From positions 930,001-994,000 of the forward strand of contig CAMRHE010000197.1 in assembly GCA_947044405.1 (NCBI GenBank): a stretch of DNA of 64,000 nucleotides. The letters run 5' to 3'. Under the pieces are notes generated by a model. It saw only the letters and a program-made list of their open reading frames with translations, made no database searches and was not told the origin of the DNA. This stretch comes from Leptodactylus fallax (lineage: Eukaryota; Chordata; Amphibia; Anura; Leptodactylidae). The position numbers and the translations under genes were made by a program. Below are positions 8,217 through 10,245 of the stretch, in pieces. Numbering within the stretch: position 1 is the stretch's first letter; each line of letters begins with the position of its first letter.

Positions 8217-8965
8217 GAATCTAAAAGAGAAGAATTGGATCGATTGCAGCAGTCTTTATCCAATACTGAACAGTCAGCATCTGCACTATCTTCAAAGCTG
8301 GCAGCACTAGAAGATGAGAAGGACTCATTGCAGAGCCTGTTAACCTCTAAAGAATCAGAGCTGTTATCCATGAAAAACGTGACTCAAGAGAGAGAGAGTC
8401 TTTATTCAACCAAGAGCAAGATAAGAGAGCTACTGAGATACGGGGCTTGAATAAAAGACTTGACAAAAAGTCTGCAGATGAGCAGAAGCTTTATCAGAAG
8501 ATGTTGGATGATCAATTCAATATAATTCAGGGAACAGTGGGGGAAGCAGAAAATATCATCCAGGATGCTGACCTGACAAATGTTAGAAGAACGCTGCAGA
8601 ATATCCTAGAATTAGGAGGCATAGTGGATAAAGAGATGGCATCTACATCTGCTGCCATAAAAGATGTCAGGAAGATTGAGGAAGTTCTGCAAGTTGCAAT
8701 AGTAAAAACTGAGATGGAGGCTGTGCAGAAAAATGTGGCAATGAAGAAAGTTCTGGAGCTGGAATCAGAGATTTGTGCGCTACAGAAGGCATTAGAATTG
8801 GAGAAAGCTGCCAGCATAGAGGCAGAGAAAGCAGAGCCATTAAGGCAGCCAGAACATGTAACCAAAAAGCATCTGGGTACTGACAGTAAAAACTGTGATG
8901 TTGAAAACTTGGTATCCCAGGTGTTAGCACAGAGAATGAAAATAACTTGGAGAATGTTGAGATGA
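8217..8965 (+). pseudogene. HIP1/HIP1R-like coiled-coil and actin-binding fragment, intronless
   Basis: Cellular HIP1-family proteins link clathrin coats to actin. This piece begins with a coiled coil (ELDRLQQ, LAALEDEKDSL), then a stretch resembling the family's MLDDQF..GTVGEAENIIQDA region. It continues with LQNILELG, VDKEMASTSAAI (start of the I/LWEQ talin-like domain) and a C-terminal VLELE helix. The order matches HIP1R, but long stretches between these landmarks are missing. The frame shifts once in a GA run near 8389-8402 and ends at TGA 8963-8965. It looks like a spliced, internally deleted mRNA copy. The start is cut by the gypsy insertion. The family call is from memory of conserved motifs. 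Confidence 0.62.
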
Positions 8966-9906
8966 TGATATCACCAGCTCCTGTACTGTCAGAAAGGAGT
9001 TGGCACGAAAATTCTTGCAATCTATCACAGTTCCGCAACATGCCTCCAGGAAGTTATGCGTATGAGAAAGAGGAGGTAAGACTAGAGTATGGAAGTGGTT
9101 CTCCTGCTGCCGTACAGGTGTGGAAGCATTATACAGAAACCATTCCAAAATATGATGTAGCAGTCGTTAAAGACATACCAGAAAATGTAGTTCAGTGTGA
9201 TCTATTTTGTGAGGGTGTTCTGTATGGTCCTCAGGGAGAAGGAGAAGATATTGCGGTACCGAGCTTGTGTATCTCAAACAAAGAGGAGAGCAAGCAGCCT
9301 ATGTCTCATAAACTTCTAAGCCTTGATGGTGATGGCAAAGTTTGCTTTGAGATGAAGGTTACGGAAAAAGTACCCGTGAAACAGTTATACTCTAAAGACA
9401 TTGATGTGCATGAAGTACGTGTTATTTGGTCTCTGAGGTCCTGTGGATTTACGATAGGTGAAGATGAAGATTCTTACGGCTATTTACTAAAGAGATCAAA
9501 GTCATGCAATGGGATGGATGAAGACTATGGCGAGAAATGTGATGAAAATGATGTGATTCCCTGTATGGTGAATTGTGAAGGTGATAAAGCAAAACTTTCC
9601 TTTGCACAGAATGGTCAGGATCTTGTTGTAGCAGTTAAAGTGATGAGAAACCGGAAATGTCGAGTAACCGGAATTTGGAAGAAGAGACCGCCAGATTGGG
9701 ACTTCTGGAGAGACACTGGACAGGCATGCATGGTTGAAGAGGGACTTCGTCATAGGATGTCTCGTCCCATTGTAGCTCACCCCATGGGTAGTGAGCTGAG
9801 GGGGAGGGTATGTGAGTATGTGAACCTAGAGGGCGCTAGGGAGCAACCCAGACCCAGGCCCAGGCCAGAAAAGGCTCTCAGCCACGCCTTTGGGTGGTGC
9901 GCGTAA
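8962..9906 (+). CDS. Open frame with hnRNP U-like SPRY domain
   Basis: About 314 codons from the first ATG of the frame, without a stop, in a different frame from the HIP1-like piece. Roughly residues 125-215 match the SPRY domain of hnRNP U: KVCFEMKVTEKVPV, YSKDIDVHEVRV.WSL, SYGY, DYGEKCDENDVI, LSFAQNGQDL. In the host gene this domain is spread over several exons; here it is continuous, implying an RNA intermediate. N-terminal (PPGSYAYEKEEVRLEYG) and C-terminal (WKKRPPDWDFWRD) parts are not recognised. The last ~30 codons run through the polypurine tract into the LTR, so the native protein end is lost. Whether it is expressed is unknown. Confidence 0.62.
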   Translation: MMISPAPVLSERSWHENSCNLSQFRNMPPGSYAYEKEEVRLEYGSGSPAAVQVWKHYTETIPKYDVAVVKDIPENVVQCDLFCEGVLYGPQGEGEDIAVPSLCISNKEESKQPMSHKLLSLDGDGKVCFEMKVTEKVPVKQLYSKDIDVHEVRVIWSLRSCGFTIGEDEDSYGYLLKRSKSCNGMDEDYGEKCDENDVIPCMVNCEGDKAKLSFAQNGQDLVVAVKVMRNRKCRVTGIWKKRPPDWDFWRDTGQACMVEEGLRHRMSRPIVAHPMGSELRGRVCEYVNLEGAREQPRPRPRPEKALSHAFGWCA

Positions 9907-10245
9907 CTCCAGAAGGCTGGAGTATTCTGCAGGGATCAGGAGATGGTGGATCAGCCAAGGACAGAGAGAGACGGTCTATCCCAGAAGGGCTGGGGTCCAC
10001 AGGGGACTGTTGCTGGAGCTGAGCAGTAGTCAGGCTAGTTAGGGGCTCAAGGAGTCAGTTAGTGCCCTAACTGTGGCCTAGATTTTTGTTATTTTGTTAT
10101 GTTGCACGTAAGCTGAATAAAGCCCGTTTATTTTTACACTTGGACCGTCTGAACGCTATCTATCCGGCGCCCAGTACCACGAACCACCGCTGTCCGGACC
10201 AGGAGTCTGCCGCCATTTTGAGACTAGTCCCCCCAAGTTGTCACA
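9811..10245 (+). repeat. LTR of the gene-carrying retroelement
   Basis: Starts TGTGAGTATGTGAACC and ends TTGTCACA. It contains a poly(A) signal AATAAA near 10116 and the segment GGCGCCCAGTACC. It is clearly related to the solo LTR at 57637-58016 (same start, poly(A) region and end), which fixes its borders. It is followed by ATATA and then Kolobok coding sequence on the other strand. Confidence 0.75.

What the first reader, a model, noticed from the sequence alone, without database searches (positions are those of the whole stretch)
8217..10245. LTR retroelement whose body is made of HIP1-like and hnRNP U-like cellular mRNA pieces
Seen: intronless coding from two unrelated cellular gene families lies head to tail, directly followed by a polypurine tract and an LTR. 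The LTR family is confirmed by a solo copy with target duplications at 57637. Known: capture of several host gene parts by a non-autonomous LTR element is rare (maize Bs1 is the classic case). Inference: this is an animal example. The SPRY part is still open over more than 300 codons. No gag or pol is visible, so it would be mobilised in trans.
Basis: partly seen in the sequence, partly recalled or inferred. Interest (0 to 1): 0.88.

Follow-up and report, generated by a model that had tools for sequence, protein, structure and literature searches.

The report
Frog jumping element built from mRNAs
A family of virus-like jumping elements in a frog genome carries, in place of genes of its own, one long reading frame stitched together from pieces of at least four ordinary frog genes, and copies preserved at different stages show the pieces being added one after another.

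Summary
Window 8217-10245 is the right end of an LTR retroelement (G000:C197:926886-940245; LTRs 96.5% alike, flanks ATAT) split by a younger Ty3-like element (flanks GAAT). All 40 loci scored in the same genome carry pieces plus LTR, 22 of 40 over all 2029 bases; 15 of 20 fetched loci show an upstream same-strand LTR. One copy has a single open frame of 1328 codons: coiled coil, MYH9 rod, HIP1R, myosin rod, BUC, hnRNP U. No gag or pol was found in the copies scanned. In old copies the hnRNP U piece runs unbroken through 8 to 10 host exon segments: it came from spliced mRNA. Old copies lack the MYH9 block, HIP1R and BUC; an intermediate has HIP1R and BUC but no MYH9 block. So capture was stepwise. 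Large deletions mostly keep the frame, yet the BUC piece shows no amino-acid constraint. Best reading: a trans-mobilised element grown by repeated template switching into host mRNAs. Partner, expression and function are unknown. It resembles maize Bs1.

The parts
1..8216 (+). Younger Ty3-like element nested in the chimeric element (not part of it); it begins 81 bases left of the window at C197:929920; its 3' LTR is 7095-8216
   Evidence: LTRs 99.6% alike, K2P 0.36%, GAAT on both flanks, RVT_1 and rve in pieces of its frame
8217..8683 (+). Right part of the HIP1R piece (about 110 and 16 host codons missing inside)
   Evidence: edge read in other copies
8684..8842 (+). Myosin-II-rod-like coiled-coil piece (myosin-9 residues about 1080-1133)
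   Evidence: E 3.6e-6; left edge shared with old copies
8843..9330 (+). BUC (Bucky ball/Velo1) piece, host residues about 124-288
9331..9642 (+). hnRNP U piece, host residues about 281-383, part of the SPRY domain
   Evidence: spans host exon edges without introns
9643..9796 (+). Tail of unknown origin, frame continues; also present in the older copies
   Evidence: no match
9797..9810 (+). Polypurine tract TGAGGGGGAGGG plus TA
9811..10245 (+). 3' LTR, AATAAA at 10116; 3' flank ATAT equals the 5' flank of the 5' LTR at C197:926886
57637..58016 (+). Solo LTR of the older LTR type, GTTG duplication

Best explanation
This is one copy of a multicopy, non-autonomous LTR retroelement family in a frog near Leptodactylus. 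Between the LTRs it carries a primer-binding-like site, a leader, one long sense-oriented frame made of host mRNA pieces, and a polypurine tract, but no gag or pol that I could find. Order: hnRNP U first, then HIP1R and BUC, then a MYH9 rod block, joined to an unidentified N-terminal coiled coil and a short myosin-like coil. Shown: LTR anatomy, target duplications, many copies with shared junctions, absence of introns in the hnRNP U piece, copies of different content, blocks whose lengths are multiples of three in the young copies, an open frame of 1328 codons in one copy. Inferred: the RNA is packaged and copied by proteins of an autonomous relative; pieces were added when reverse transcriptase switched at short matches from element RNA to a co-packaged mRNA and back; in-frame products were favoured because an open frame ending near the poly(A) site helps the RNA persist or be packaged.
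For: 40 of 40 scored loci (of 5823 candidates) carry pieces plus LTR, 22 of 40 over the whole query. Upstream same-strand LTR in 15 of 20 fetched loci. Exact 4-base duplications in 9 of 14 copies with both ends read, 3 of 4 bases in 2, unclear in 3 (L016 read by eye). Same tract and same TATGGTGC-type site after the 5' LTR in most copies. LTR K2P 1.4-5.6% in 12 copies, 3.6% in the window copy. Host hnRNP U at C200: L034 runs unbroken over 8 exon segments, L037 over 10. 4 of 4 oldest-type copies examined lack MYH9 block, HIP1R and BUC; L030 has HIP1R and BUC but no MYH9 block. hnRNP U piece closer to host in the 4 old copies (90-97%) than in 20 young (78-88%) or 2 intermediate ones (84-86%). 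BUC piece groups with Leptodactylus (96/87; 98/91). One frame of 1328 codons with myosin tail, HIP1 and SPRY in order.
Against: No autonomous partner and no transcript was looked at. In 4 of 20 fetched loci no second LTR was seen in the stretch, and in 1 only an inverted one. Several copies have stops (8 of 21 in the BUC and hnRNP U part; 10 of 58). BUC piece: no amino-acid constraint. MYH9 and HIP1R absence in old copies could in principle be loss by deletion at short matches; the BUC-free junction and the longer, more host-like hnRNP U piece argue for ancestry. Host HIP1R and MYH9 genes were not located, so intron loss is shown for hnRNP U only. The tRNA for the primer site was not identified.
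Confidence: 0.87

Rival explanations
1. The captured frame is passive cargo: the pieces are recent, neutral, and open only because they come from coding sequence; only LTRs, primer site and tract matter.
For: BUC against host: fixed changes 14 nonsynonymous to 3 synonymous over 374 to 109 sites; dN/dS 1.0 or more in 20 of 22 rows, 0.79 in L013, 0.43 in L030. Among 21 copies N:S is 125:52 in singletons and 57:19 in shared variants, stops 7 of 184 and 2 of 78. Few small indels in any copy of that stretch, so a low indel rate alone could keep frames open.
Against: 7 of 8 large deletions among 16 copies are multiples of three (lengths worked out from its coordinates; P 0.0026), though 399 and 378 are whole heptads in a repetitive coil, which lowers the weight. 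The three blocks are multiples of three in the young copies (P 0.037). No stop in the window copy where neutral change to 10-19% amino-acid divergence predicts 2.9-6.1.
Confidence: 0.5
2. A LINE-made chimeric processed pseudogene that lies beside, or was hit by, an unrelated LTR.
For: Spliced mRNA pieces and only one LTR inside the window.
Against: Tract and LTR abut the body at the same place in the copies read; duplications lie outside the LTR pair; 40 loci share the junctions.
Confidence: 0.02
3. All pieces were captured at once and the smaller old copies are deletion products.
For: The HIP1R block is flanked by GAGGAA on both sides, so a deletion at that match would give the old sequence.
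Against: Old copies hold hnRNP U sequence that young ones lack, are closer to host, and have a 30-base interval where BUC sits that is not found in BUC-bearing copies. Old and young are split by one branch, 100/99 (17 copies).
Confidence: 0.1

Closest known systems
Maize Bs1 (LTR retroelement with segments of three host genes; PMC13317346, passages)
   Same: LTR element carrying pieces of several unrelated host genes; hybrid frame (title of a cited paper seen in the same passages).
   Different: Animal host; other donors (hnRNP U, HIP1R, BUC, MYH9); many copies; intermediates of the capture series are preserved; a 1328-codon frame. Details of Bs1 beyond the passages are recalled.
Crocodilian ERVs with captured KIT-ligand or nectin3 (PMC4299795, passages)
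   Same: Vertebrate LTR elements with host mRNA inside.
   Different: One gene per ERV group there, with purifying selection reported; here serial capture of parts, fused in one frame, without visible protein constraint.
Acute transforming retroviruses with two host genes (E26, MH2; recalled, no call)
   Same: Defective, helper-dependent LTR genomes with fused host pieces.
   Different: Those keep gag and are infectious with a helper; here no gag was found, a germline family with at least four donors.
Turmoil-1 of C. elegans (PMC2572040, start of abstract)
   Same: Two protein-coding sequences inside one animal transposable element.
   Different: Pieces lie in inverted terminal repeats there; here spliced mRNA copies between LTRs.

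Membership tests
Non-autonomous LTR retrotransposon | Two same-strand LTRs, TG...CA | tested here: met
   15 of 20 fetched loci, window copy included
Non-autonomous LTR retrotransposon | Target-site duplication | tested here: met
   4 bases, exact in 9 of 14, near in 2, unclear in 3; ATAT in the window copy and L010 is low complexity
Non-autonomous LTR retrotransposon | Primer-binding site complementary to a tRNA 3' end | tested here: inconclusive
   TGG-starting site two bases after the 5' LTR in most copies; no tRNA matched
Non-autonomous LTR retrotransposon | Polypurine tract before the 3' LTR | tested here: met
   13 of 13 copies and the window copy, with base changes in a few
Non-autonomous LTR retrotransposon | No gag or pol of its own | tested here: met
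   Pfam on frames of L011, L025, L026, L016, L034, L035 and a leader frame of L024; other copies not scanned
Non-autonomous LTR retrotransposon | Mobilised by a partner's proteins | not tested
   No partner searched for with success
Bs1-like multi-gene transducing element | Pieces of two or more unrelated host genes | tested here: met
   hnRNP U, HIP1R, BUC, myosin
Bs1-like multi-gene transducing element | Pieces derived from spliced mRNA | tested here: met
   hnRNP U only: 8 and 10 host exon segments fused; BUC lies in one exon; HIP1R and MYH9 not tested
Ty3/Metaviridae | Ty3-type reverse transcriptase | not testable with these tools
   The element has no pol; the similar tract of the nested Ty3-like element is only suggestive
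LINE-made processed pseudogene | Poly-A tail and duplication directly around the retrocopy, no LTR | tested here: not met
   Body ends at tract and LTR; duplications lie outside the LTRs

The most novel reading that the evidence does not exclude
The element evolves by a ratchet: reverse transcriptase repeatedly pastes patches of oocyte mRNAs (among them that of the germ-plasm organiser BUC) into the element's single frame, and mainly in-frame patches and in-frame deletions persist because an open frame reaching the poly(A) region, not its amino-acid sequence, is what selection keeps (for example by protecting the RNA from nonsense-mediated decay, or by coupling translation to packaging).
Probability: 0.33. 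Interest if true: 0.93.

Novelty: new variant of a known kind. Interest (0 to 1): 0.86.

Why it matters
Capture of several host genes by one LTR element is known from maize Bs1, and single captures from vertebrate ERVs. Here successive stages survive side by side in one vertebrate genome, so the order, edges, splicing state and frame of each capture can be read directly. That makes two open questions testable: how template switching builds chimeric frames, and whether a mobile RNA can be selected for having an open frame rather than for its protein. BUC is a maternal germ-plasm gene (PMC5080839 and PMC3633952, passages), which fits capture in the oocyte.

Tried and rejected
LINE retrocopy beside an LTR by chance: rejected. 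One-step capture: disfavoured. An early belief that few indels and no stops prove selection on the protein was withdrawn: BUC against host gives dN/dS 1.0 or more in 20 of 22 rows, and shared variants show no drop in N:S. A '19-base deletion shared by 3 copies' in the output is an artefact of local alignments that stop early in those rows, and is not used. hnRNP U piece against host (26 rows): ratio 0.14-0.44 in 4 old copies, 0.37-1.01 in 20 young ones, 0.22 and 0.55 in L030 and L032; counts are small and the host branch adds silent change, so nothing is claimed. Identity of the N-terminal coiled coil and of the 3' tail: not found. Short myosin piece against the large protein set: 138 candidates, none significant. 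Viral contigs: no match. hnRNP U and HIP1R trees did not resolve the donor lineage. Copy number by junction or tract pattern: not completed. Adding four deletions judged against host proteins would make 11 of 12 in frame, but these were seen through open frames, so only 7 of 8 is used; the label '321' for a HIP1R deletion should be about 330. Paper searches.

Full report
What is there. The finding's stretch is the right end of a larger element. The window is G000:C197:930001-994000 of a 2.5-Gb genome. A Ty3-like element with nearly identical LTRs (K2P 0.36%) spans C197:929920-938216, flanked by GAAT on both sides; it ends at window 8216. Outside it the chimeric element resumes: to the left, in L009, lie a 5' LTR (C197:926886-927314), a primer-binding-like site, a leader and the front half of the frame; to the right lies window 8217-10245. 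Both outer flanks are ATAT.

Body in the window. Profile and sequence searches give HIP1R, a myosin-rod-like coil, BUC and hnRNP U, all sense, then a tail of unknown origin, an 11-purine tract and the LTR. The window copy is broken by two small frame shifts, near 8394 and 8921.

Other copies. The genome search scored 40 of 5823 candidates; its 59 matches fall into 40 loci, each reaching the end of the LTR, and 22 of 40 cover the whole query. The other 18 lack part of the HIP1R piece. In 20 fetched loci (19 further copies plus the left side of the window copy) 15 have a same-strand upstream LTR; L015, L017, L019 and L027 show none within the stretch and L023 only an inverted one. Four-base duplications are exact in 9 of 14 copies with both ends read, 3 of 4 bases in L014 and L018, unclear in L021, L022 and L025 (L016 read by eye). 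LTR divergence is 1.4-5.6% in 12 copies. A search with the BUC protein listed 59 places from 2389 candidates: one is the host gene (C69, 93% to Leptodactylus fuscus), 58 match the piece in one stretch, 48 of 58 without a stop there; three of the 58 were read (L030, L031, L032). On 721 bases of BUC and hnRNP U, 21 copies form a shallow, star-like tree with no inner branch of full support.

The long frame. One copy keeps a stop-to-stop frame of 1328 codons (first methionine at codon 26) that ends 262 bases into the 3' LTR, before its AATAAA. Pfam sees myosin tail, HIP1 clathrin-binding and SPRY in order. In another copy the MYH9 block matches human myosin-9 residues 1232-1604 (E 9e-103), closely to about residue 1520. 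In 17 of 18 copies where the tail could be anchored the frame's stop lies 31-262 bases into the LTR (L017 and L023 not anchored; L021, anchored inexactly, is the exception).

Spliced mRNA as source. L034 aligns without a break over 8 segments of the host hnRNP U gene at C200, and L037 over 10. BUC cannot be tested this way, since the piece lies inside one host exon. Host HIP1R and MYH9 genes were not located.

Order of capture. A search with hnRNP U scored 58 of 10662 candidates; four were read. All four (L034-L037) carry the N-terminal coil, the short myosin coil and a long hnRNP U piece, and lack the MYH9 block, HIP1R and BUC; an old-type LTR follows in three of four. L030 with L033 has HIP1R including most of the roughly 110 codons later lost, BUC, a longer hnRNP U piece and no MYH9 block, with an LTR only 77% like the window's. 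Young copies have all blocks but shorter HIP1R and hnRNP U. The hnRNP U piece is nearest to the Leptodactylus protein in the old group (90-97%, one of them over 75 positions only) against 78-88% in 20 young and 84-86% in two intermediate copies. Old and young are split by one branch (100/99, 17 copies). The BUC piece groups with Leptodactylus (96/87; 98/91), which places that capture in this frog lineage; the hnRNP U and HIP1R trees did not resolve.

How it most likely works. Edges carry short matches: GAGGAA on both sides of HIP1R and in the uninserted old copies, and GATGGT at the BUC/hnRNP U edge, which the uninserted copies also have and through which the host BUC match runs. In young copies the blocks are 798 (MYH9), 576 or 579 (HIP1R, after its deletions) and 489 bases (BUC, in place of 30), all multiples of three. 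That fits reverse transcriptase switching from element RNA to host mRNA and back. Trans-mobilisation follows from the absence of gag and pol in the frames scanned together with the LTR hallmarks; it is not shown.

Is the frame selected? For: 7 of 8 large deletions among 16 copies keep the frame (192, 198, 399, 378, 96, 324 and 1506 do, 127 in one copy does not, P 0.0026); 399 and 378 are whole heptads, and in five of the 16 the 5' part was not aligned. Neutral change would have left 2.9-6.1 stops in the window copy, which has none. Against: BUC shows 14 N to 3 S fixed; shared variants show no fall in N:S (57:19 against 125:52) and include 2 stops; small indels are rare in general, so open frames prove little. 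The amino-acid sequence looks free while the frame looks kept; this is suggestive, not settled.

Comparison. PMC13317346 (passages) describes Bs1 with segments of three host genes; PMC4299795 (passages) describes single captures in crocodilian ERVs. In nine paper searches (listings and starts of abstracts, open-licence papers only) I saw no animal LTR element with serially captured genes. The 85 proteins cover at most 34% of the chimera in their best alignment, so no annotated protein there is the chimera; that search scored only 7995 candidates.

Noticed in passing
L009:1-4864 (C197:922001-926864): An older, inverted copy of the same family (body 85%, LTRs 80-81% to the window's) lies directly left of the window element.
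   Followed up: partly
L030/L033 and window 9811-10245: Older and younger copies share internal sequence at 82-95% but their LTRs are only 77% alike, so the LTR may have been exchanged or evolves faster.
   Followed up: partly
G000, hnRNP U search: 10662 first-look candidates for hnRNP U, and the 58 scored places did not include the host gene; the older generation may be very numerous.
   Followed up: no
window 21844-23433, 25158-26812, 30967-32539, 34733-36283, 52005-53663, 53856-54805, 61573-63146: Inverted-repeat units, probably Tc1/mariner-like transposons (class recalled).
   Followed up: no
window 14081-15451, minus strand: Frames that look like a LINE reverse transcriptase (class recalled).
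   Followed up: no
window 18539-21302 and 46254-48901: Two stretches 76-88% alike in register.
   Followed up: no
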